Shown one piece after another: positions 1-40,630 of a stretch of DNA of 64,000 bases. The notes beneath the pieces are model-generated. The model was not told where the DNA came from and did no database searches. It saw nothing but the letters and a program-made list of their open reading frames with translations. Source of the DNA: Chloroflexi bacterium TSY (GTDB lineage Bacteria; Chloroflexota; Anaerolineae; Caldilineales; Caldilineaceae); the NCBI GenBank assembly GCA_019217005.1, contig JAHBNG010000070.1, positions 1 through 64,000 of the forward strand, written 5' to 3'. The first letter of the stretch is position 1; each line of letters starts with the position of its first letter. The translations under genes and the position numbers were made by a program.

Positions 1-284
1 ATTTGCTGAGAAACGTCATTGCCGGAGAAGACCGTTTCGGTGGCTCGGGCAGGCCGCCGTATCCATACTCATCAAGAGTCCTGCGGCTTGCGTTGTGACG
101 GTCTGATTAATGGTGTTCATTTGCTGTTGGGCGAGGCCGCATTCTGCATCCCCAAACCAACAGTATGCCCCATCGTCTGATAGACCATTGCAAGGGCTTC
201 GGCTGGAGCGTCAGCTAACACTTTCACATTGCTTTGCGTTACAGCATCGGTTATTTGTCCATTGACTAAAGTTGGATCTGCCAT
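1..284 (-). pseudogene. RebB-family R-body protein, frame-broken and cut by window edge
   Basis: The ATG at 284 follows AGGAACC at good spacing and opens a protein starting MADPTLVNGQITDAVTQSNV. The invariant-looking ITDAVTQ-N-KVL core and following APAEAL/YQT/NA pattern are those of the RebB (R-body, killing trait) family, small proteins that polymerise into coiled ribbons in Caedibacter and other bacteria. In this frame a stop falls at 117, after about 55 residues. The family-like continuation AQQQMNTINQTVTTQAAGLL is present in the -1 frame, and the first frame becomes open again (ARATETVFSGNDVSQQ) and runs past position 1. Two compensating one-base differences near 133 and 46 would give a normal-length RebB. 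Either the gene is decayed or the sequence has two indel errors. It is the last visible gene of a minus-strand operon. Family assignment is confident; functional state is not. Confidence 0.78.
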
Positions 285-469
285 TGTTTGGTTCCTTTCA
301 AATATGTTGCTCGAACATTGACATCGTTTGGTTCACCTTTTTGAGACTGAACATTCGGTCTCGCAATTAGTATTTGGCAATAGGCATTCTCCTTTATGAA
401 ATGATGCAACGCGATAGATGGCATTCTGATCTCTATACGTTTGTGCCTTTGTTACATATGAATTAGGAT

Positions 470-793
470 TTATTGTTTTGAGCCGCTTGCCATCGTGTTC
501 AACATGGTTAGAAGCTGATCAAATGGATCGCTCGTTGCATCAACCGATTGTGTTGCTCCTGTTGTAGCGGTTGGCATTCATCAATCGGTTGATTGCTTGC
601 GTCGTAATCGCTTGACTTAGGACATTCATCTGTTGCTGAGCCGCCACTGCATTTTGCATGGATAGCGAAACTTGCGCGCCATGGCCTGTTGCACCACAGC
701 CAGCGACTGAGATGAAGATTGCGCAGCAGCAGGTTCGTTCGATTGAGCCACTGCATCGGCAATTTGACCACTAAGGACCGAAAAGTCCGCCAT
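470..793 (-). pseudogene. second RebB-family R-body protein, two compensating frame breaks
   Basis: The ATG at 793 opens MADFSVLSGQIADAVAQSNE, the same N-terminal pattern as the RebB gene at 1-284. Read straight, the frame stops at about 643. The RebB-like middle (GAQVSLSMQNAVAAQQQMNV, then LSQAITTQAINRL) lies in the -1 frame, and the tail (TTGATQSVDATSDPFDQLL, ending TMASGSKQ and a TAA at 470) is back in the first frame. So one base appears lost near 668 and one gained near 565. The full conceptual product is about 107 residues, the usual RebB size. Neighbours are small paralogous genes upstream and the other RebB gene downstream, all on the minus strand, consistent with one operon. It may be a true pseudogene or carry sequencing indels; the identical break layout in both copies is noted as a finding. 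Confidence 0.75.
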
Positions 794-929
794 CTGAATC
801 CATGCATCCTAAATAATTGTCAACTGTGAAGTGTAATTGAGAATTTTTGATGAGCGTTCTTGGAAGCTGACGGAAGCCATTGACAATTGAGGCGTTTGTA
901 GGATCCGAGTGTCCAAAGCACCCGTTTGA

Positions 930-1214
930 TCATTTACTATAGAGCGCAACGCTTGTTGTGGAGCGGAACGGCGTCAAAGGGATAAATCTGTCTAAGCCTC
1001 CATTTGTCTCGATGACCACCATCTTGTCATCGCCTGTCTCCCAACCAAGTGCCCAGACAAATTGAAACGGCTCCACGGTATAGATATGTTCGACAATTCG
1101 CCCCTCTTGACTTCCCTGAATGGTAAACTTGGTCGCTTGATCGATATAATTTCCCAAGCAAATCGCCCCACTCTCTGCCAACCAGGTGCCAAAGGGGTGG
1201 CTTGATCTGATCAT
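930..1214 (-). CDS. small R-body-locus protein C (paralogue of the genes at 2705 and 3115)
   Basis: This protein of about 94 residues has no recognised function. Its core (AICLGNYIDQATKFTIQGSQ, then a GWETGDDKMVVIE segment) aligns along its length with AICLNNLLDKSATFQIRGTR and GWEVGADKMLSVE of the gene at 2705-3073, so the two are paralogues. The C-terminal half of the 3115-3750 product has the same layout (CLANYYNNKVGFEV...). The predicted content is mostly beta strand with a conserved Gly-Trp-Glu. No good ribosome binding site precedes the ATG at 1214, and an IS ends only 46 bases upstream, so the original N-terminus may have been cut off: the paralogue has about 40 residues before the shared core and this one about 18. 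It lies between the IS and the RebB genes and is probably a structural or accessory component of the same locus. Confidence 0.6.
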   Translation of the reverse strand: MIRSSHPFGTWLAESGAICLGNYIDQATKFTIQGSQEGRIVEHIYTVEPFQFVWALGWETGDDKMVVIETNGGLDRFIPLTPFRSTTSVALYSK

Positions 1215-1259
1215 AAATGGACTTTTCAGAAATATCCGGGAATTTTCCGATTCTCTTTT

Positions 1260-2728
1260 CTTTACTTTCTGTAAAAGAAAGAGATGAGGGAAAATGTGAC
1301 AAAAAGCGGTTAGCAGTTCATCCTAAAGGTAGAGAAAAAGGAGGAAGGAATGCTAACGCGCCAGAAATAACTATAGCAGTACTGATGAATGTATTGCAAG
1401 TAACGCCGATGGGAACAAACGTAAATGTAATGCGTCTGATGTGGGCAATGCTGAATGGGTCGTTTCTGAAAAGTCGAGAGCAATCCATAGCGCATTGAAA
1501 GAAAGCGGGTTTGAAGATGAGGAGCTCCGGCGAAGCTGGTGGAGCTTTCGATATGGATCATGGGATATCACAAGTCTGCTGGGGTCGTGGCAAGAGAAGT
1601 GGAAAGGGAATGGGAGGCAAAAAAAGTTAGAAGGGTACCGAGTGAAAAGCATAGATATCACAGGGTTCTGGCGACCGAAGCTGCAAGGGAAAGTGAACCG
1701 ACTCTATAACTCAACGGCTCGTCGGGCATTGCCCGCTCATCTTTGGAGTGATGATAAGCTCGGGGAGATAGGCGGGAAGCGAGTGCCACTGCTCAAGGCA
1801 ATCATGAGATGCACGGTTGGAACAAAGGAAGTGAGTTTCGGAAAAAGCTGCTGACAGAGACGAAGAAATCACTGGAGTCAGACGAAGTGGCGGTGGTCGA
1901 TGCCGGGTTTACAATCAGAGAAATGCTAGAAAGCGGCATAGACCGATTTGTCCTGCGGAAGCCATTAACTGCACAGTGCGCCGCAATGAGTTCCCCAAAC
2001 GCAAAGAAAAAAGACCACCTGAATATGGTGATATTGTGCGTCCGCTCTCTCGCAGCTATAAGGGCGACTCGAGGCTACAACTCCGGACTCGTCTGGTCGC
2101 TTTCTCTATAGTGGTCGCCTGATTTGCTATCAAGCATGGCACAATCTCGTCCCCAGAACAACCAAGGTGGATACAGCCAACCGTACCTACTCGATTTACG
2201 TCATTCAGGATCCGGCCTACAACACACCTTTGGTTTTGGCGACCGTTATGACTTTGCAGCCTGAAACCATTTATCTTGTCTACCTGGAACGCTGGCCTGT
2301 TGAACCTCCCCCCTTGGCTTCCAAGCAGATGATTGGCTTACATCGTCAATTTGTTCATGCCGATGAGGCTTGTTTCCGCTTACCTGAACTGGGGCTGCTG
2401 GCTGGCAATCTTCTTTCCCATTTAGCCGCTTCTCTCTCCCATACCGACTGGCTACTGGGATCGAGGCCTCAATCCACTCCCGGCAGGCTGCGCCGTGTTC
2501 TCTCGAGTGCTCTTTTCCAACTCCTGACCAACTCGACCTGACTTTCGGAAAAGGCCTCGGTTTCACACCATTTCCCTAAAGGCGTTCTCGCTCATCGCCG
2601 CCTCAATGCCGCTGCTTAAACTAGCCGAGCACTATTTTTACATTTTATCCCGTTTTTTCAGGGTGGATTCTTTTTTCCGCCCCTTTCGGTTTGCCCTTTG
2701 TCACTCAAGCCTTTACCAGAAAGTAAAG
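1260..2728 (+). mobile_element. IS copy 1 of a ~1.5-kb IS4-like family, decayed
   Basis: The ends are inverted repeats (CTTTACTTTCTG at the left; CAGAAAGTAAAG at the right) identical in plan to the copies at 9478-10977 and 39127-40630. The flanks share CTTTT (1255-1259 and 2729-2733), a probable target duplication. The transposase reading frame is broken in many places compared with the intact copy at 39226-40521, and the element is about 35 bp shorter, so it cannot encode an active enzyme. It is inserted within the R-body-like operon, between two paralogous small genes transcribed in the opposite direction, and probably interrupts their cotranscription. Confidence 0.85.
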
Positions 2729-3073
2729 CTTTTTGAAGAGGACAAAATTCGCTGTTGATAGAAAGGGGGCAAAGAGGCGTGATTGATCTTCAACTTCTAC
2801 TGACAACATCTTGTCTGCACCCACTTCCCAGCCAATGACCCATTCTATTGTGTAGGGTGCAACTTCTATTGAATCAGTCTTGATTACACCCTGACGCGTC
2901 CCACGAATTTGGAACGTAGCAGATTTATCCAGCAAGTTGTTCAAACAGATAGCTGCTGTGTGCCCTGCCGGTCGATGCTGTTCAGCATTCCCTGGAATCA
3001 CGTTTGTGGGTTGATCAGTTGCAGCATCGTGATTGGTTTGGTCGTCACTTGCCTGCTCAAATTGATCATTCAT
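2705..3073 (-). CDS. small R-body-locus protein B with IS-derived C-terminal tail
   Basis: This is a 122-residue product with AGGACG upstream of the ATG at 3073. The first 40 residues are polar and rich in Asp, Gln and Asn; the rest is the shared core of this locus (AICLNNLLDKSATFQIRGTR, then GWEVGADKMLSVE). It is a clear paralogue of the product of 930-1214. The last eight residues (KLYFLVKA) and the stop codon are supplied by the inverted repeat of the IS that begins at 2728; the native protein probably ended near the preceding FVLFK. The gene lies 42 bases downstream of the 3115-3750 gene on the same strand, so the two are probably cotranscribed. No known domain is recognised. A role in an R-body-type particle is inferred only from the RebB genes downstream. 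Confidence 0.62.
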   Translation of the reverse strand: MNDQFEQASDDQTNHDAATDQPTNVIPGNAEQHRPAGHTAAICLNNLLDKSATFQIRGTRQGVIKTDSIEVAPYTIEWVIGWEVGADKMLSVEVEDQSRLFAPFLSTANFVLFKKLYFLVKA

Positions 3074-3114
3074 AGGGCGTCCTGATTCATCTCATGCTGA
3101 ACTCAGAATTAAAA

Positions 3115-3750
3115 TTATTCAGGCTTCGTATAAATTGCAAAGACGGTACTCTGGTTGAAATCTCGCGTGATGGGCTGAGCATACGAGGGGATGGTTTCAA
3201 CCTTCACTTGATATCCTTCTCCCGATGGCAAGGTGTCGATAAACGTAAAAGAATAGGGATCGACCATGATCACGATTTTAGGATAATGCGGATCGGGCTG
3301 GCTATTTTTCAACAATGTCACTTCAAAACCTACTTTGTTATTATAATAATTTGCTAAACAGAGACAGGGCGTTTTGGCAGACTGAATTTTTTTTAGTAAC
3401 GCCTCATCAGATAAACTCAGGTTCGTTTTTAGGGAGGTTGTAAATGTGGATAAGGCTCTTTTGATGTTTGGATGTGTTATGACTTCTGTTTGAGTTACAC
3501 CTAGTTTCTGTTGCAAAAGAGACTCAATCTGTTGTTGTGTTGTTCCTGACTCTGGCTGTGACTCTGCCGCTGCATGTGCTAGTGAATTGGCTAATTCCCT
3601 CGCCTTCTGCTCTGCATCTACCAATACATTCGCCAAGTCATCCGGCGGAGAATGTAGCGGTGCCTTTGCCAAGGCATCTGCCAATGCATTTGCCTTTGTC
3701 GCTGCCTCTGCTAATGCCTTTGCTGCTGCCTGTTGGTTTACAGTGGCCAT
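3115..3750 (-). CDS. R-body-locus protein A: Ala-rich helical N-terminus plus shared beta domain
   Basis: This is a 211-residue product. Residues 1-65 are very Ala-rich and helical (repeated KALAEAATKANALADALAKA-type heptads). A linker and a helical segment follow (QQQIESLLQQKLGVTQ, residues 72-87). The C-terminal 85 residues (CLANYYNNKVGFEV... to VFAIYTKP) follow the pattern of the two small paralogues downstream: an ICL-N-Y start, an alternating beta core and a short hydrophobic end. The ATG at 3750 has GAGAGGC upstream. The gene directly follows the promoter with 11-bp-spaced repeats and is the first gene of the putative operon. The combination suggests a self-assembling or coiled-coil component, but the family is not recognised and the function is inference from context. 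Confidence 0.62.
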   Translation of the reverse strand: MATVNQQAAAKALAEAATKANALADALAKAPLHSPPDDLANVLVDAEQKARELANSLAHAAAESQPESGTTQQQIESLLQQKLGVTQTEVITHPNIKRALSTFTTSLKTNLSLSDEALLKKIQSAKTPCLCLANYYNNKVGFEVTLLKNSQPDPHYPKIVIMVDPYSFTFIDTLPSGEGYQVKVETIPSYAQPITRDFNQSTVFAIYTKPE

Positions 3751-3807
3751 AATTGCCTCTCGTTATTCATATGTCTAGCGCGGAGAATATTGATTTGAGT
3801 AAGGACT

Positions 3808-3922
3808 AGTATAGCAATAAAGTCTCCCGTCCTCGTCCCAAAACTCTCCCAAAATCGGGCAATTTTGACCAATTTCTGAAATTATTCGCTTTCTCTCCCA
3901 AAACTCTCCCAGACTGCTCCCA
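3808..3922 (-). promoter_or_regulatory. SARP-type promoter: two clusters of 11-bp-spaced direct repeats and a -10 box
   Basis: On the plus strand TCCC(A) begins at 3825, 3836 and 3847, and again at 3896, 3907 and 3918: two clusters of three, each with an exact 11-bp period. Read on the minus strand (the direction of the operon) these are TGGGA repeats, and TATACT at 3813-3808 makes a good -10 box with about eight bases between the last heptamer and the box. Heptameric direct repeats at 11-bp spacing that replace the -35 and end about 8 bp before the -10 are the known binding layout of SARP/BTAD regulators, and such a regulator is encoded immediately upstream. Regulation of this operon by that protein is inferred. 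Confidence 0.7.
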
Positions 3923-3983
3923 ACTTATCATAGATATGATACCGATTTATTTCCACAGGCGGGGGGAGGTGATGGATGATCGG

Positions 3984-4019
3984 TATTCAGTGTTCAGTAT
4001 TCAGTGTTCAGTATTCAGG
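3984..4019. repeat. short tandem repeat of a 14-base unit
   Basis: TATTCAGTGTTCAG is repeated about two and a half times between the regulator gene and the repeat-bearing promoter. No function is evident; it could affect spacing or transcription between the two genes. Confidence 0.7.
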
Positions 4020-4070
4020 ATGGGTCAACGGGTCAAGAGACAACGAGTCAGATACTGAATACTTATCACT

Positions 4071-6023
4071 TTAGTCTTGGGAATGCGCCATGAGGCGATT
4101 TTGCCAATAATGGCGTCGTGGAGGAAATAGGCCTGTATAGATGACCTGGTGAAAGAGAGGATAGGTAAAGGCAAATCGATAATCCCGTTGGCCTTCATAA
4201 ATTAATCCATAAAGATAGAGTTCTTCCATAGCATCCAGGAAAGCTTCTTCGGACCAATCGCCAGCTTGCTGAACCTGACGATAGTCAAATTCTAGCCCGG
4301 CGACTGTTGCGGCTTGTAAAATGTGTTGGCTGGTTGGGGTCAATTGGCGTGTTAGAGTGGTAAAGAGGGTTTGTAAAGGATAAGAGATGGGAATTTCGAT
4401 CTTTTCCACTTCTGATAGGAAAGGGCCACTCCAAAATCCCTGGTTGTTAACGTAAATCTGATCCGCTTCGATTAAACTATGAATGATTTCCTGTAACACT
4501 CGGGGATTGCCCCCACTTTCGCGAAAAAGACGATCGGCAACGGAGCGTACTTGTGTACCCTGGAGTCCAGACAGTCGCATCACGAAAGTTTGGCAGTCTG
4601 CCTGGGACAAAGGATTCAACGAAAATGAGAGGACGGTTTGGTGATTTGCGTAGCGGTATTGCAGCCGAGATATGGGATGGTGGGCATCGATTTCTTCTAA
4701 CTGATAGGTGACAACGAGTAAGAGTGGAATTTGTGACATCTGGTCGAGCAGGTATGTCAACCAATCAAGCGTGTCTGTTGATGCCCACTGCAAATCTTCC
4801 AAGACCATCACAAAGGGTTGAAGACGTCCCAGTGCTTTAACAGCCTGGGTCAGCACCTCGAAAAGTTTCAGGTGGCTATGCTCTTGAGAGTCAGACAGTG
4901 TACCTGTCAGATTCTCTGACGATTCAAACCAAATATCAGGCAACAGATGTCTCAACCAGAATCGGTAGGTCGGTTCCAAATCACTTTGCTGAAGTTGGCC
5001 AGCGGCTGGTCGCAAGACAGTCGCCAAGGTTTGATAAGCCAACACTTGCTCGTATTCATGGCAAGTTCCCGTCAAAATCCAAACCCCTTGTTGCTTCAAT
5101 GACTGGGTAAAACTTTGAATCAAATGGCTCTTGCCCACACCTGCCTGCCCGCCAATGAGCGCACAGGCTCCCTCACCTGCTGCGACATTTGTCCACAGAG
5201 AACGCAGGGAATCCATCTCAATGGTTCGGCCAACAAGATCTTGATTTGAATTTAACGTTTTGGCTCGTTCGGGAGTCGGATCCAAGGGTGACGTAATGAC
5301 TGTTGAGACTGACAACCCCTCGCTAATTGCCATCGCCAACTCTTGGGTCTCGGCCATTGGCTCAACCTCAATCTCTTGACGCAAGATGGTCTTGGCTGCT
5401 TCATAGGTCGTCAAGGCCGCGGCACGATCTCCACTCAAATAGTAGAGACGCATCAGGTCACGATATGTTGCTTCGCTTAAGGGATCGAAGGTTAATTGTC
5501 GTTGGGCCAGATTGATCGCCTGATCAAACGCTTCATGTGCCCAATAATGCGTCATCAGCTTCTCTAGCGTTTGGCTATATACCTGTTGCAGTCGATTTCG
5601 TTCAGCCACCACCCAATCATCGTCAAGCTCAGGTAGTAAGTCACCTGTATAGATATCGAGACTCTTTTCCAGACTGAGTACGGTGTCTTGCCGCACAAGA
5701 TGTTCAAATTCAGCAACGTCAAGTGCGTAAGGACCAGATGGATTCCAGTGTAAATCCTGGCGCGTTGAGATAATCCATTCATCTTTCTCGGAGGCAGGCA
5801 ACACCTTGCGCAATTCGTTGAGCGCACGGCTGAGGATACTACGACATTCCGTCTCAGTGGTATCTGGCCAAAGCACAGGGGCAATCCGCTCTCGAGTCAG
5901 AAAGGCGCGACGGTTGAGCAACAAATAGGCAAATAAACGTTTTGCTCGAGGGCGTAACTGTTGAACCGTCGTCTCGTCATGAATAATTTTCAAATGACCG
6001 AACAACTTTATTTGCAACGTCAT
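4071..6023 (-). CDS. BTAD (SARP-like) transcriptional activator with AAA ATPase domain
   Basis: This is a 650-residue regulator. The start at 6023 is chosen because AGGAGG lies just before it; a longer frame from 6089 lacks one. Residues 1-95 form the OmpR-type winged helix of BTAD regulators (LKIIHDE..., LRPRAKRLFAYLLLNRR, SILSRALNELRKVLP). Residues 100-250 are the bacterial transcriptional activator domain with TPR-like helices. The ATPase follows, with Walker A GGQAGVGKSH and Walker B FVMVLEDLQWAS, and then a helical C-terminal region. Such STAND-type regulators act as ligand- or nucleotide-gated activators binding 11-bp-spaced direct repeats. Exactly such repeats lie between this gene and the next gene on the same strand, so it is probably the dedicated activator of the R-body-like operon. 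The ligand is unknown. Confidence 0.9.
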   Translation of the reverse strand: MTLQIKLFGHLKIIHDETTVQQLRPRAKRLFAYLLLNRRAFLTRERIAPVLWPDTTETECRSILSRALNELRKVLPASEKDEWIISTRQDLHWNPSGPYALDVAEFEHLVRQDTVLSLEKSLDIYTGDLLPELDDDWVVAERNRLQQVYSQTLEKLMTHYWAHEAFDQAINLAQRQLTFDPLSEATYRDLMRLYYLSGDRAAALTTYEAAKTILRQEIEVEPMAETQELAMAISEGLSVSTVITSPLDPTPERAKTLNSNQDLVGRTIEMDSLRSLWTNVAAGEGACALIGGQAGVGKSHLIQSFTQSLKQQGVWILTGTCHEYEQVLAYQTLATVLRPAAGQLQQSDLEPTYRFWLRHLLPDIWFESSENLTGTLSDSQEHSHLKLFEVLTQAVKALGRLQPFVMVLEDLQWASTDTLDWLTYLLDQMSQIPLLLVVTYQLEEIDAHHPISRLQYRYANHQTVLSFSLNPLSQADCQTFVMRLSGLQGTQVRSVADRLFRESGGNPRVLQEIIHSLIEADQIYVNNQGFWSGPFLSEVEKIEIPISYPLQTLFTTLTRQLTPTSQHILQAATVAGLEFDYRQVQQAGDWSEEAFLDAMEELYLYGLIYEGQRDYRFAFTYPLFHQVIYTGLFPPRRHYWQNRLMAHSQD

Positions 6024-6216
6024 GATATATCCTCCTAGTGGGTACAAAAAACTGCACTTCTCCTTTGATTGGGTCAGAAAATCTCGCACACAGGCGACAA
6101 ATTTTCTAACTTGCGCCTTAGCGACTTTGTGGAAGGCAATTTCCTAGCATCAGTTGCGTCAACGCTAAGTCAGATAAATCAACGTTCATGAGTCATGGAA
6201 CTGCTGTACTCGACTA

Positions 6217-6286
6217 AAAAAGTTTCGTCCTGTCTCGGCCCAGCAATATTTGATGAGGCGAGTTGTGGTATAGATCTTTTCTAGGG
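6217..6286. repeat. palindromic dispersed repeat (coding-invading family), intergenic copy
   Basis: This 70-bp unit begins AAAAAGTTTCGTCC and ends GATCTTTTCTAGGG, and is flanked by GACTA on both sides (6212-6216 and 6287-6291). It shares its core (GATGAGGCGAG, TGTGGT) with the segment inside the glycosyltransferase gene near 15,770-15,844 and, more loosely, with 21,972-22,046. The direct repeats suggest transposition. The rest of the 6,024-7,253 gap holds no convincing gene: the only reading frame of note (6281-6547, minus) is low-complexity and overlaps this repeat. Confidence 0.6.
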
Positions 6287-6964
6287 GACTATATGAACAG
6301 ACAAGCACTCATTTTCGTGTTCATGGTGGCACTGTCGAACCACATGAGATCCTGTTGAACCGGAATCTATGTTCAAGTTAGTTAATTCCGATTCCTTACA
6401 GGTGGTAGAGATATGGCGATAGAGGTTATAGAAGGTTTTCGCACTGTCCTCGGTGGGGAAGGTCCCTGAGGTAGTCTGTTGACCTGAGCCATTCTGATGC
6501 CTCCTTGGTGTAAGTCTCCACGTTGGGAATGGCGAGGGTTTTCTCACCTAACAGCTTGTCGGCGAAACTGAAACAGCAAAAATTAGGACACGGATAAACA
6601 CAGATTTTCCCGGATTTGTTTGTTGAAATGATTAAAAATCCGTGTTTGTCCTGAAAATCCGCGTCCCATCTCCGTTCTAAGAGACATGGAAGAAGACTTT
6701 TCGGCTCTTCAGAAATACAGGGGTTGACAAGACCAGAAATGGTTGGCGACGATTGAGTGACCGTATCGAAACCAGAGCGGGTCTACCTCCTGAGATCCGG
6801 TTGAACCGCCTTTTCTAGGAATTATGGGAGTGTGAAGTCTATTGAATTATACCGGTTGAGAGATAGGTTGTGCAACGAGCATTTATTTGTTCAGATTGAC
6901 AATATTCAATTCATTGCAGCATCATGACGCGCAGGGTAGCGCCTAAGCGCTACGAACGCGTTAC

Positions 6965-9413: not shown

Positions 9414-9477
9414 ATAAGGTCATTCCAGAAAATTAATGATCCACAGATGGACAGGATTAAAGAGATTTTCAAGAAAC

Positions 9478-10977
9478 TTTACTTTCTGGTAAAGGCTTGA
9501 GTGACAAAGGGCAAACCGAAAGGGGCGGAAAAAAGAATCCACCCTGAAAAAACGGGATAAAATGTAAAAATAGTGCTCGGCTAGTTTAAGCAGCGGCATT
9601 GAGGCGGCGATGAGCGAGAACGCCTTTAGGTAAATGGTGTGAAACCGAGGCCTTTTTCCGAAAGTCAGGGTCGAGTTGGTCGGGAGTTGGAAAAAGAGCA
9701 CTCGAGAGAACGCGGCGCAGCCTGCCGGGAGTGGCTTGAGGCTCTCGATCCCAGTAGCCAGTCGGTATGGGAGGAAGAGAAGCGGCTAAATGGGAAAGAA
9801 GATTGCCAGCCAGCAGCCCCAGTTCAGGTAAGCGGAAGCAAGCCTCATCGGCATGAACAAATTGACGATGTAAGCCAATCATCTGCTTGGAAGCCAAGGG
9901 GGGATGTTCAACAGGCCAGCGCTCCAGATAGAAAAGATAAATGGTTTCAGCTTGTAAAGCCATGACGGTCGCCAGAACCAAAGGTGTGTGATAAGCAGGA
10001 TCCTGAAAGACGTAAATCGAATAGGTGCGGTTGGCTGTATCCACCTTGGTTGTCCTGGGGACGAGATTGTGCCATGCTTGATAGCGAATCAGGCGACCAC
10101 TATAGACAAATTGACCAAACGAGTCTGGAGTTGTGGCCTCGAGTCGCTTTCCCCTATAGCATCGAGAGAGCGGACGCACAATATCACCATATTCGGGTGG
10201 TCTGCCTTTTTCCTTACGTTCGGGTAACTCATTGCGGCGCGCTGTGCAGTTAATCGCTTCCCGAAGGACAAATCGGTCGACGTCGCTTTCTAGCATTTCT
10301 CTGATTGTAAACCCGGCATCGACCACCGCCACTTCGTCTGACTCCAGTGATTTCTTCGTCTCTTTCAGCAGCTTTTTCCGAAACTCACTTTCCTTTGTGC
10401 CTACCTCGCATCTCATGATTGCCTTGAGCAGTGGCACTCGTTTCCCGCCTATCTCCCCCCGAGCTTATCATCACTCCAAAGATGAGCGCGGGCAATGCCC
10501 GACGAGCCGTTGAGTTATAGAGTCGGTTCACTTTCCCTTGCAGCTTCGGTCGCCAGAACCCTGTGATATCTATGCTTTTCACTCGGTATCCTTCTAACTT
10601 TTTTGCCTCCCATTCCCCCTTTCCACTCCACTTCTTCTTGCCACGATGAGAGCAGGCTTGCAATATCCCATGATCCATATCGAAAGCTCCACCAGCTTCG
10701 CCGGAGCTCCTCATCTTCAAACCCGCTTTCACTCAATCCACTATGGATTGCTCCTCGACTTTTCAGAAACGACCCATTCATCATCGCCCACATCAGACGC
10801 ATTACATTTACGTTTGTTCCCACCGGCGTTACTTGCAATACATTCATCAGTACTGCTATAGTTATTTCTGGCGCGGTTAGCATTCCTTCCTCCTTTTTGG
10901 GTTCTCTACCTTTAGGATGAAACGCTAACCGCTTTTTGTCACATTTCTCACCTCATCTCTTTTACCAGAAAGTAAAG
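9478..10977 (-). mobile_element. IS copy 2 of the ~1.5-kb IS4-like family
   Basis: The 1500-bp element is bounded by CTTTACTTTCTGGTAAA at the left and TTTACCAGAAAGTAAAG at the right, with AGAAA on both flanks (9473-9477 and 10978-10982). It lies within a dispersed repeat whose halves (CCACAGATGGACAGGAT and GTCGATCTGTGGATCG) remain on either side. Nearly identical to the intact copy at 39127-40630. Confidence 0.9.
9586..10883 (-). pseudogene. DDE transposase of IS copy 2, two homopolymer frameshifts
   Basis: This is the same product as the intact 431-residue transposase at 39226-40521. Two extra bases break the frame: a run of five C where the intact copy has four G on its strand (near 10,616), and a run of six C against five (near 10,453). 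The reading frame therefore falls into three pieces (10883-10515, 10732-10385 and 10437-9586). Because both changes are homopolymer expansions in an otherwise near-identical copy, either recent inactivation or sequencing error is possible. Confidence 0.85.
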
Positions 10978-36859: not shown

Positions 36860-36938
36860 GATTCACAGATGGACGAGAGTCACTGGATTTTCCGCTTGCT
36901 AATCCTGTAAATCCTGTTCATCTGTGGATCATTTATTT
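36860..36938. repeat. dispersed intergenic repeat with CACAGATGGACG / CATCTGTGGATC arms
   Basis: The left arm TTCACAGATGGACGAG and the right arm TTCATCTGTGGATCATTT are imperfectly complementary around AATCCTGTAAATCC. Related fragments lie at 9421-9460 with 10985-11030 (split by an IS) and at 16070-16120. It lies between the aeRF1-like gene and the dehydrogenase. Confidence 0.6.
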
Positions 36939-37931
36939 TTTGGAATTACCCAACCAATTCTGAACGCGTGGATGCTCGAGTACGTCAGGGTTCAGAATAT
37001 GATCGGGTTTGCGTCCCTGGATCGCGTCGGTTGCCTGTTCAATGCTTTTGGCGTCTAGCCGCATGGTCGATTCAACCGAAATACCCGCATTATGATTCGT
37101 GCAAATTATGCGCGGATGTCCTTTGTGGATGGCCCGAGTGCTATTGACTGGATCATCCACTACATAGTAATAAAGCTTTTCTTCTTGAATGGCCCGATTG
37201 ACCGCTTCATCATCAACAAGATTGCCGCGAGAAGGGTTGATCAAAGAAGCGTGAGGCTGCATCAGGGAGAGCAGATCATACGTTACAATTGTCTCATCGC
37301 CTGACACATGGAGTGAGACGGTGTCGCATTCTTTGAAGAGGGTTGCAGGCGAGTCGACAACTTCTGCACCATACTGCGCTGCGATCTCCTCAATGTCGGG
37401 ACGCAGATCGTAGACCAGTAGACGACCATGTTCGCCCAACAGCGGTTTCGCACGCATGGCAACTTCCTGTCCGATACGTCCACAACCATAGAGACCCAGG
37501 GTAGTGTGTTGCGCTTCGTAGGTACGGATAATAGAAAAATCGCCCTGATGGGACAGATTATTAAGGGTATAAACTCGCTTCAGCGTGGCCATCCACTGAG
37601 CGATCGTATACTCAGCCACTGCATCCATATGCACGGGTGTGACCGTAATAATCACACCGACCTGCGTGGCCTTCTCCACATTTACCTTGTCGAACCCAAC
37701 ACCCCAGCGGGCAACAATTCGTAGATCTGAGGCTGCATCGTAAAAAGCGTCTGTATAGAGCGAGGAGCTTGCAATTGACGCGACCAAGCCAGGAGCATGT
37801 TCTGGACCAAGAACCGCTGGCTCATCAACCAATTCGCCCAAGGTTCGGAGATGATCCAATCCCTGTTGGCGCTCGACTGAGGCAAACTCGTCATTCCGAA
37901 ATTGAGCAGTAAGCATAATTTTGGGTTTCAT
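36933..37931 (-). CDS. D-2-hydroxyacid dehydrogenase (NAD-dependent)
   Basis: This 332-residue enzyme is of the D-isomer specific 2-hydroxyacid dehydrogenase family. The Rossmann motif is LGLYGCGRIGQEVAMRAKPL; the substrate-domain pieces are VARWGVGFDKVNVEKA and the catalytic Arg in LINPSRGNLVDDEAV, with the His in CTNHNAGISVEST. The central VSLHVSGDETIVTYDL segment is typical of PGDH-like members. It reduces or oxidises 2-hydroxy/2-oxo acids; the substrate is unknown. The ATG at 37931 has AAGGACATACC nearby. It is not linked to other amino acid genes. Confidence 0.88.
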   Translation of the reverse strand: MKPKIMLTAQFRNDEFASVERQQGLDHLRTLGELVDEPAVLGPEHAPGLVASIASSSLYTDAFYDAASDLRIVARWGVGFDKVNVEKATQVGVIITVTPVHMDAVAEYTIAQWMATLKRVYTLNNLSHQGDFSIIRTYEAQHTTLGLYGCGRIGQEVAMRAKPLLGEHGRLLVYDLRPDIEEIAAQYGAEVVDSPATLFKECDTVSLHVSGDETIVTYDLLSLMQPHASLINPSRGNLVDDEAVNRAIQEEKLYYYVVDDPVNSTRAIHKGHPRIICTNHNAGISVESTMRLDAKSIEQATDAIQGRKPDHILNPDVLEHPRVQNWLGNSKK

Positions 37932-39126: not shown

Positions 39127-40630
39127 CTTTACTTTCTGGTAAAAGAAAAGAGATGAGGTGAGAAATGTGACAAAAAGCGGTTAGCGTTTCATCCTAAAGG
39201 TAGAGAACCCAAAAAGGAGGAAGGAATGCTAACCGCGCCAGAAATAACTATAGCAGTACTGATGAATGTATTGCAAGTAACGCCGGTGGGAACAAACGTA
39301 AATGTAATGCGTCTGATGTGGGCGATGATGAATGGGTCGTTTCTGAAAAGTCGAGGAGCAATCCATAGTGGATTGAGTGAAAGCGGGTTTGAAGATGAGG
39401 AGCTCCGGCGAAGCTGGTGGAGCTTTCGATATGGATCATGGGATATTGCAAGCCTGCTCTCATCGTGGCAAGAAGAAGTGGAGTGGAAAGGGGAATGGGA
39501 GGCAAAAAAGTTAGAAGGATACCGAGTGAAAAGCATAGATATCACAGGGTTCTGGCGACCGAAGCTGCAAGGGAAAGTGAACCGACTCTATAACTCAACG
39601 GCTCGTCGGGCATTGCCCGCGCTCATCTTTGGAGTGATGATAAGCTCGGGGGAGATAGGCGGGAAACGAGTGCCACTGCTCAAGGCAATCATGAGATGCG
39701 AGGTAGGCACAAAGGAAAGTGAGTTTCGGAAAAAGCTGCTGAAAGAGACCAAGAAATCACTGGAGTCAGACGAAGTGGCGGTGGTCGATGCCGGGTTTAC
39801 AATCAGAGAAATGCTAGAAAGCGACGTCGACCGATTTGTCCTTCGGGAAGCGATTAACTGCACAGCGCGCCGCAATGAGTTACCCGAACGTAAGGAAAAA
39901 GGCAGACCACCCGAATATGGTGATATTGTGCGTCCGCTCTCTCGATGCTATAGGGGAAAGCGACTCGAGGCCACAACTCCAGACTCGTTTGGTCAATTTG
40001 TCTATAGTGGTCGCCTGATTCGCTATCAAGCATGGCACAATCTCGTCCCCAGGACAACCAAGGTGGATACAGCCAACCGCACCTATTCGATTTACGTCTT
40101 TCAGGATCCTGCTTATCACACACCTTTGGTTCTGGCGACCGTCATGGCTTTACAAGCTGAAACCATTTATCTTTTCTCTCTGGAGCGCTGGCCTGTTGAA
40201 CATCCCCCCTTGGCTTCCAAGCAGATGATTGGCTTACATCGTCAATTTGTTCATGCCGATGAGGCTTGCTTCCGCTTACCTGAACTGGGGCTGCTGGCTG
40301 GCAATCTTCTTTCCCATTTAGCCGCTTCTCTTCCTCCCATACCGACTGGCTACTGGGATCGAGAGCCTCAAGCCACTCCCGGCAGGCTGCGCCGCGTTCT
40401 CTCGAGTGCTCTTTTTCCAACTCCCGACCAACTCGACCCTGACTTTCGGAAAAAGGCCTCGGTTTCACACCATTTCCCTAAAGGCGTTCTCGCTCATCGC
40501 CGCCTCAATGCCGCTGCTTAAACTAGCCGAGCACTATTTTTACATTTTATCCCGTTTTTTCAGGGTGGATTCTTTTTTCCGCCCCTTTCGGTTTGCCCTT
40601 TGTCACTCAAGCCTTTACCAGAAAGTAAAG
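39127..40630 (+). mobile_element. IS copy 3 of the ~1.5-kb IS4-like family, intact
   Basis: This 1504-bp element has 17-bp inverted ends CTTTACTTTCTGGTAAA / TTTACCAGAAAGTAAAG and a perfect AGGGAA duplication (39121-39126 and 40631-40636). It is the reference copy, as its transposase is unbroken. Nearly identical to 9478-10977 and clearly younger than 1260-2728. Confidence 0.93.
39226..40521 (+). CDS. DDE transposase of IS copy 3 (IS4-type, tentative)
   Basis: This is an intact 431-residue transposase. AAGGAGGAAGGA precedes the ATG. The central region has the first catalytic Asp in VAVVDAGFTIREMLE; then VLREAINCTARRNELPER, a variable segment, KVDTANRTYSIYVFQDPAYH, and the probable Glu region ETIYLFSLERWPVEHPPL followed by ASKQMIGLHRQFVHADEA. 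The overall spacing resembles the IS4-like DDE families, but no exact family can be assigned without a database. It is the likely source of the activity that moved all three copies. Confidence 0.85.
   Translation: MLTAPEITIAVLMNVLQVTPVGTNVNVMRLMWAMMNGSFLKSRGAIHSGLSESGFEDEELRRSWWSFRYGSWDIASLLSSWQEEVEWKGEWEAKKLEGYRVKSIDITGFWRPKLQGKVNRLYNSTARRALPALIFGVMISSGEIGGKRVPLLKAIMRCEVGTKESEFRKKLLKETKKSLESDEVAVVDAGFTIREMLESDVDRFVLREAINCTARRNELPERKEKGRPPEYGDIVRPLSRCYRGKRLEATTPDSFGQFVYSGRLIRYQAWHNLVPRTTKVDTANRTYSIYVFQDPAYHTPLVLATVMALQAETIYLFSLERWPVEHPPLASKQMIGLHRQFVHADEACFRLPELGLLAGNLLSHLAASLPPIPTGYWDREPQATPGRLRRVLSSALFPTPDQLDPDFRKKASVSHHFPKGVLAHRRLNAAA

What the first reader, a model, noticed from the sequence alone, without database searches (positions are those of the whole stretch)
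1..6023. Candidate R-body-type locus driven by a SARP/BTAD regulator
A BTAD-AAA regulator (4071-6023) is followed on the same strand by three small genes whose products share one uncharacterised domain (3115-3750, 2705-3073, 930-1214) and then two RebB-family genes. RebB proteins are R-body subunits; R-bodies are known mainly from proteobacteria, with other regulators. A locus of RebB plus a three-member paralogue family under a STAND/SARP regulator has not been described to my knowledge. The shared domain (ICL-N-Y ... GWE-G-DKM) may be a companion subunit or cap.
Basis: partly seen in the sequence, partly recalled or inferred. Interest (0 to 1): 0.85.

Follow-up and report, generated by a model that had tools for sequence, protein, structure and literature searches.

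The report
Half-dead R-body operon behind SARP activator
An unidentified bacterium carries a gene switch of the antibiotic-regulator type next to a half-broken set of genes for coiled protein ribbons (R-bodies), together with small companion proteins of a kind hardly known elsewhere.

Summary
A SARP-type BTAD-AAA regulator (4071-6023, minus) is followed on the same strand by A (3115-3750), B (2705-3073), C (930-1214) and two rebB genes (PF11747, 2e-17). Both rebB genes are frameshifted. B and C look like two halves of one two-domain gene, split by a 1,469-bp insertion sequence with a 5-bp target duplication. The regulatory claim gains support: between regulator and A lie two triplets of GGGA repeats at exact 11-bp spacing, the only such triplets in the window (0 in 100 shuffles). 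The nearer ends 8 bp before an extended -10, the published SARP promoter geometry. The shared domain has four members found among 5.8 billion proteins: three here, one in Chloroflexi bacterium TSY. A profile of it finds nothing significant near 82 other reb loci. The old insertion seems to have cut the operon: genes before it stay open, genes behind it decay. Best reading: a SARP-controlled, partly dead R-body operon with lineage-specific companions, a new variant of a known kind. The companions' role is inferred.

The parts
4071..6023 (-). SARP-type regulator: winged helix, BTAD, AAA_16 (650 aa, open)
3889..3921 (-). distal triplet of 11-bp GGGAG repeats (putative SARP operator)
3818..3850 (-). 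proximal triplet of 11-bp GGGA repeats (putative SARP operator); last heptamer 3822-3828 lies 8 bp from the -10
   Evidence: geometry as in PMC10936776 (passage)
3808..3816 (-). putative extended -10, TGC-TATACT
   Evidence: read from the sequence; not among the sigma-70 sites, which ask for a -35
3115..3750 (-). gene A: Ala-rich N-terminal part plus one companion domain (211 aa, open)
2729..3073 (-). first half of the split companion gene (ORF B without its IS-derived end)
1260..2728 (+). insertion sequence, old copy, terminal repeats, 5-bp duplication at 1255-1259 and 2729-2733, transposase broken
930..1259 (-). second half of the split companion gene: linker piece in one frame, domain C (ORF 930-1214) in another
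570..793 (-). rebB gene 1, frameshifted (pieces 674-793 and 570-671)
49..284 (-). rebB gene 2, frameshifted (pieces 132-284 and 49-132), runs towards the window's end

Best explanation
This is an R-body (reb) operon that was switched on by its own SARP-type AAA regulator. The regulator, probably when its AAA part senses a signal, binds as cooperating monomers to the two triplets of 11-bp repeats and recruits RNA polymerase to the extended -10 upstream of A (inferred from the published SARP mechanism). The transcript would have run through A, a two-domain gene (B+C) and at least two rebB genes. A and BC are lineage-specific beta-sandwich proteins that most likely served R-body use, for instance by binding the ribbon or its target surface (weakly supported inference). 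An insertion sequence then split BC; the genes behind it lost transcription and are decaying, while regulator, operator and A remain open and are probably still used. The host is probably a relative of Chloroflexi bacterium TSY (inferred from one protein).
For: Regulator domains and AfsR alignment. RebB pieces. Two GGGA triplets with 11-bp period, both between regulator and A, 0 in 100 shuffles, the only 4-mer triplets of period 11 in the window; 8 bp to TATACT, as in PMC10936776 (passage) and like the three-heptamer operator of PimR (PMC5930380, passages). Same strand throughout, 41 bp between A and B. Insertion with terminal repeats and 5-bp duplication; frame of B carries on, allowing for 1,474 bases, as the linker frame that matches P0003. 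IS copy 1 has 5.0% substitutions and 17 frame-breaking indels against copy 3; at that rate the regulator and A would hold about 23 and 7 frameshifts, and they hold none.
Against: No transcript or binding data. Triplets of some 4-mer at period 11 are not rare as such: 55 in 1.46 Mb of 87 other loci; the heptamer register that gives 8 bp is my choice. The matches of B's end and of the linker piece to P0003 are weak one by one (E 0.094 and 0.025). About 3 to 5 breaks behind the insertion are fewer than the rate of IS copy 1 predicts, so some of that copy's divergence may predate insertion. No companion domain or such regulator was found at other reb loci, so co-occurrence rests on one locus. C to rebB 1 is 136 bp, and the window ends within the locus.
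Confidence: 0.55

Rival explanations
1. The SARP regulator and the A/BC proteins form a system of their own (for example surface or secreted beta-sandwich proteins), and the reb genes lie downstream by chance or came later.
For: No companion-domain match near 82 other reb loci; regulator and A stay open after the reb genes broke; 136 bp between C and the first rebB gene.
Against: Same strand and contiguous; no terminator-like site listed on the minus strand of 1-6400 outside the insertion. Non-Reb partner genes are known to differ between reb groups (PMC3583457 section 11).
Confidence: 0.25
2. The frameshifts are sequencing or assembly errors, and the operon is intact in the organism.
For: The breaks cluster near the window's end, possibly near a contig end (protein searches give a 73,737-base longest contig).
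Against: IS copy 1 also differs by 5% substitutions from copy 3, while copies 2 and 3 differ by 0.2%. Long ORFs elsewhere in the window are open. The protein that ends inside the IS lies on 4 contigs.
Confidence: 0.1
3. B and C were separate neighbouring genes, and the insertion fell between them.
For: C has an ATG-started ORF of 94 aa of its own; the linker matches to P0003 are short.
Against: Frame arithmetic, order of the matches and P0003, which has a B-like start, the linker and the C domain in one protein.
Confidence: 0.2

Closest known systems
[quoted passage not shown] 2013 (PMC3583457, section 11 and passages read)
   Same: RebB-family genes in a row next to small proteins without known domains
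   Different: Those clusters have HP1.x or HP2.x partners and, in Group 2, sigma-factor and Crp-type neighbours (seen also in L003 and L006); here a SARP regulator and an unrelated companion domain, reb genes broken
SARP regulators with NTPase part, AfsR and PimR type (PMC10936776, PMC5930380; passages)
   Same: Winged helix, BTAD, AAA-type part; 11-bp direct repeats, 3' repeat 8 bp from the -10, three repeats as for PimR
   Different: Target looks like a reb operon instead of an antibiotic cluster; 650 aa against 993 for AfsR; two triplets
Hypothetical protein KFU94_46725 (P0003) of Chloroflexi bacterium TSY
   Same: 77% identity over 79 residues to domain C; start and linker like B and the piece behind the insertion
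   Different: Has one copy of the domain; its neighbourhood could not be read

Membership tests
R-body (reb) locus | RebB-family (PF11747) genes | tested here: met
   PF11747 63.5 bits against cut-off 24 for gene 2; profile pieces for both genes
R-body (reb) locus | At least three reb homologues in one cluster (the count used in PMC13430693) | tested here: inconclusive
   Two seen; the window ends within the locus
R-body (reb) locus | Open reading frames for the subunits | tested here: not met
   Both rebB genes frameshifted
R-body (reb) locus | Forms coiled ribbons | not testable with these tools
   needs microscopy
Raymann Group 1 / Group 2 synteny | HP1.x or HP2.x partners, sigma factor or Crp neighbours | tested here: inconclusive
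   A, B, C show no match to annotated partners of five plasmid loci (best E 0.32, to a RebB protein), but the far side of the locus lies outside the window
SARP regulator | Winged helix plus BTAD | tested here: met
   BTAD 78.6 bits; Trans_reg_C 25.1 bits, just under the cut-off 26.2; AfsR 8hvr over 6-233, E 3.9e-6
SARP regulator | Direct repeats 11 or 22 bp apart, 3' repeat 8 bp from the -10 | tested here: met
   register chosen by me
SARP regulator | Activates transcription of the target | not testable with these tools
   needs a binding and transcription assay

The most novel reading that the evidence does not exclude
A SARP/STAND-controlled R-body system outside the described synteny groups, whose ribbons work with a new family of beta-sandwich companion proteins (A, BC) that attach the ribbon to a target surface; the regulator plus A module is kept in use after the ribbon genes died.
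Probability: 0.25. Interest if true: 0.72.

Novelty: new variant of a known kind. Interest (0 to 1): 0.5.

Why it matters
What switches reb genes on and which partners they need is open in most bacteria: PMC3583457 (section 11) calls the partner genes priority targets, and PMC13430693 (passages) notes regulators near reb genes. A readable SARP operator in front of a reb operon would give a directly testable switch, and would show a SARP in charge of a protein machine instead of a small-molecule pathway. The companion family, with four members found, is a candidate for the missing partner proteins.

Tried and rejected

Searches with no relatives: genome contigs with A2 (its two patterns would not have matched P0003 either), viral contigs with A3, plasmids with P0003, phages at near identity, Rfam and tRNA scans of the window. 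The protein searches reach only relatives that share 5-residue words and a similar length. In ORFs of 83 loci (82 with reb genes, one phage contig) the profile of A, B, C and P0003 had best E 0.54, A alone 2.5, the full regulator no hit at 1e-5 (the single-query lists for B, C and P0003 were cut from view). The winged-helix/BTAD half alone had one hit, L064 at 0.0013, a winged-helix plus TPR protein; the AAA half none. PF03704 (BTAD): 32 of 42 genomes have a match, none on a listed reb-bearing contig within 10 kb except a weak one (8.5e-4), 8.8 kb from the reb genes in G008. I gave those two of the 77 genome-contig loci, leaving out many Thalassospira and other near relatives; the RebB list was cut, so not all reb contigs were seen.

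Literature, open-licence library only: no paper holds both 'R-bodies' and 'SARP' or both 'Chloroflexota' and 'RebB'; none names Chloroflexi bacterium TSY. That TSY comes from a sponge is recalled, not seen in a call.

Full report
What is there. On the minus strand of 1-6023 lie, in order of transcription, a 650-aa regulator, gene A, ORF B, an insertion sequence, ORF C and two RebB-family genes. The regulator carries BTAD (78.6 bits), AAA_16 (94.3 bits) and a winged helix just under the Pfam cut-off (25.1 against 26.2). In the PDB it aligns to AfsR (8hvr over residues 6-233, E 3.9e-6). The open piece 117-284 hits PF11747 at 2e-17. With a profile built from 20 RebB proteins of five plasmid loci, pieces of both genes match in order but in different frames. 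Searched one by one against ORFs of the 83 loci then held, the two pieces of gene 2 found matches in 83 and 15 loci and those of gene 1 in 70 and 78 (its printout says 86, but the ORF set is that). So both genes are real and both are frameshifted.

The companion genes. B and C are clear homologues (E 2e-18); A joins through C (1e-5) but not through B (0.11). Among 5.8 billion proteins, at the sensitivity of the tool, the members found are the three of this window and P0003, 'hypothetical protein KFU94_46725 [Chloroflexi bacterium TSY]'; the taxonomy puts TSY in Chloroflexota. The stretch 1260-2728 is an insertion sequence: it shares terminal repeats and body with two further copies in the window (9477-10977 and 39127-40630) and is flanked by a 5-bp duplication. 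The last 7 residues and stop of ORF B lie inside it. Allowing for the 1,474 added bases, the frame of B continues as the frame of a linker piece beyond the insertion. Short stretches of B's end and of that piece match P0003 in the same order, before the C domain, which is 77% identical to P0003 over 79 residues but now stands in another frame. The short matches are weak one by one (E 0.094 and 0.025); order, spacing and frame make the case. B and C are thus probably the two halves of one gene.

The switch. Between the regulator's stop and A stand two clusters, 3889-3921 and 3818-3850, each of three GGGA repeats at exactly 11 bp. The pattern GGGA-N7-GGGA-N7-GGGA occurs twice in 64 kb, both here, and in none of 100 shuffles. 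Among all 4-mers tripled at period 11 the window has only these two; other periods from 8 to 24 have 0 to 10 such sites. Triplets of some 4-mer at period 11 do occur in other DNA (55 in 1.46 Mb of 87 loci), so what counts is the same motif twice, on one strand, next to a SARP gene. The last heptamer, 3822-3828, ends 8 bp before TATACT (3808-3813), which has TG one base ahead. SARP promoters are described with repeats 11 or 22 bp apart, the 3' repeat 8 bp from the -10 (PMC10936776, passages); PimR binds three heptamers with 4-bp spacers plus a second operator (PMC5930380, passages). The heptamer register here is my choice, and a plain sigma-70 scan does not list this site.

Decay. IS copy 1 differs from copy 3 by 5.0% substitutions and 19 indel events, 17 of them frame-breaking; copies 2 and 3 differ by 0.2%. 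If the regulator and A had drifted at that rate they would carry about 23 and 7 frameshifts; they carry none. The genes seen behind the insertion (C half, rebB 1, rebB 2) are broken. The simplest account is that the insertion cut off the promoter-distal genes, which then decayed, while regulator, operator and A stayed under selection. Two cautions: part of copy 1's divergence may predate insertion, and the roughly 3 to 5 breaks behind it (3, more by eye) are fewer than its rate predicts.

How unusual. A scan of one genome per species found 475 RebB relatives, of which the best 80 were kept as 77 loci; none of these 77 record titles names Chloroflexota. With five plasmid loci that makes 82. The companion profile finds nothing significant there (best E 0.54). 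In 42 of the 77 genomes BTAD matches are common (32 of 42) but not beside reb genes on the contigs listed, one weak match 8.8 kb away excepted. Described clusters have other neighbours: sigma factor and Crp-type regulators in Group 2 (PMC3583457 section 11; seen in L003 and L006). PMC13430693 (results part 1, section 19 and passages) lists several phyla with reb genes; its main text holds neither 'Chloroflexota' nor 'BTAD'.

What it does. Shown: gene content, breaks, repeats. Inferred: activation by the SARP regulator, one transcript, and a role of A and BC with the ribbon. The model of C is a seven-strand beta-sandwich (pLDDT 80.7 in one of five models) without a significant fold match. Such folds often bind things, so a surface- or ribbon-binding role is a guess. 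The main rival is that A and BC have a role of their own. The host's phylum rests on one protein and is not settled.

Noticed in passing
window 9477-10977 and 39127-40630: Two further, nearly identical copies (0.2% apart) of the insertion sequence that splits the companion gene; the copy at 9477-10977 has a 5-bp target duplication too, read from the flanks.
   Followed up: partly
window 9418-9458 and 36910-36950: A 41-bp stretch beside IS copy 2 recurs at 90% identity, perhaps a small dispersed repeat.
   Followed up: no
window 3983-4015: 14-bp tandem repeat just behind the regulator gene, before the operator repeats.
   Followed up: no
L001:878-2128: A phage contig (IMG/VR) encodes a protein holding the stretch VNDQITDAVTQSN, typical of RebB starts; PHROG 32040 also matches the rebB 2 piece at 6.9e-10.
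   Followed up: no
L012:7891-9759: In a Candidatus Eremiobacteraeota locus a 622-aa protein with a Kelch_1 match (2.9e-5) and a PI-PLC-X match below its cut-off (3.3e-4) stands upstream of three reb genes; a possible partner protein.
   Followed up: partly
L064:11086-12549: In an Acidobacteriota reb locus an ORF on the opposite strand near the reb gene encodes a winged-helix plus TPR protein, another regulator type beside reb genes.
   Followed up: partly
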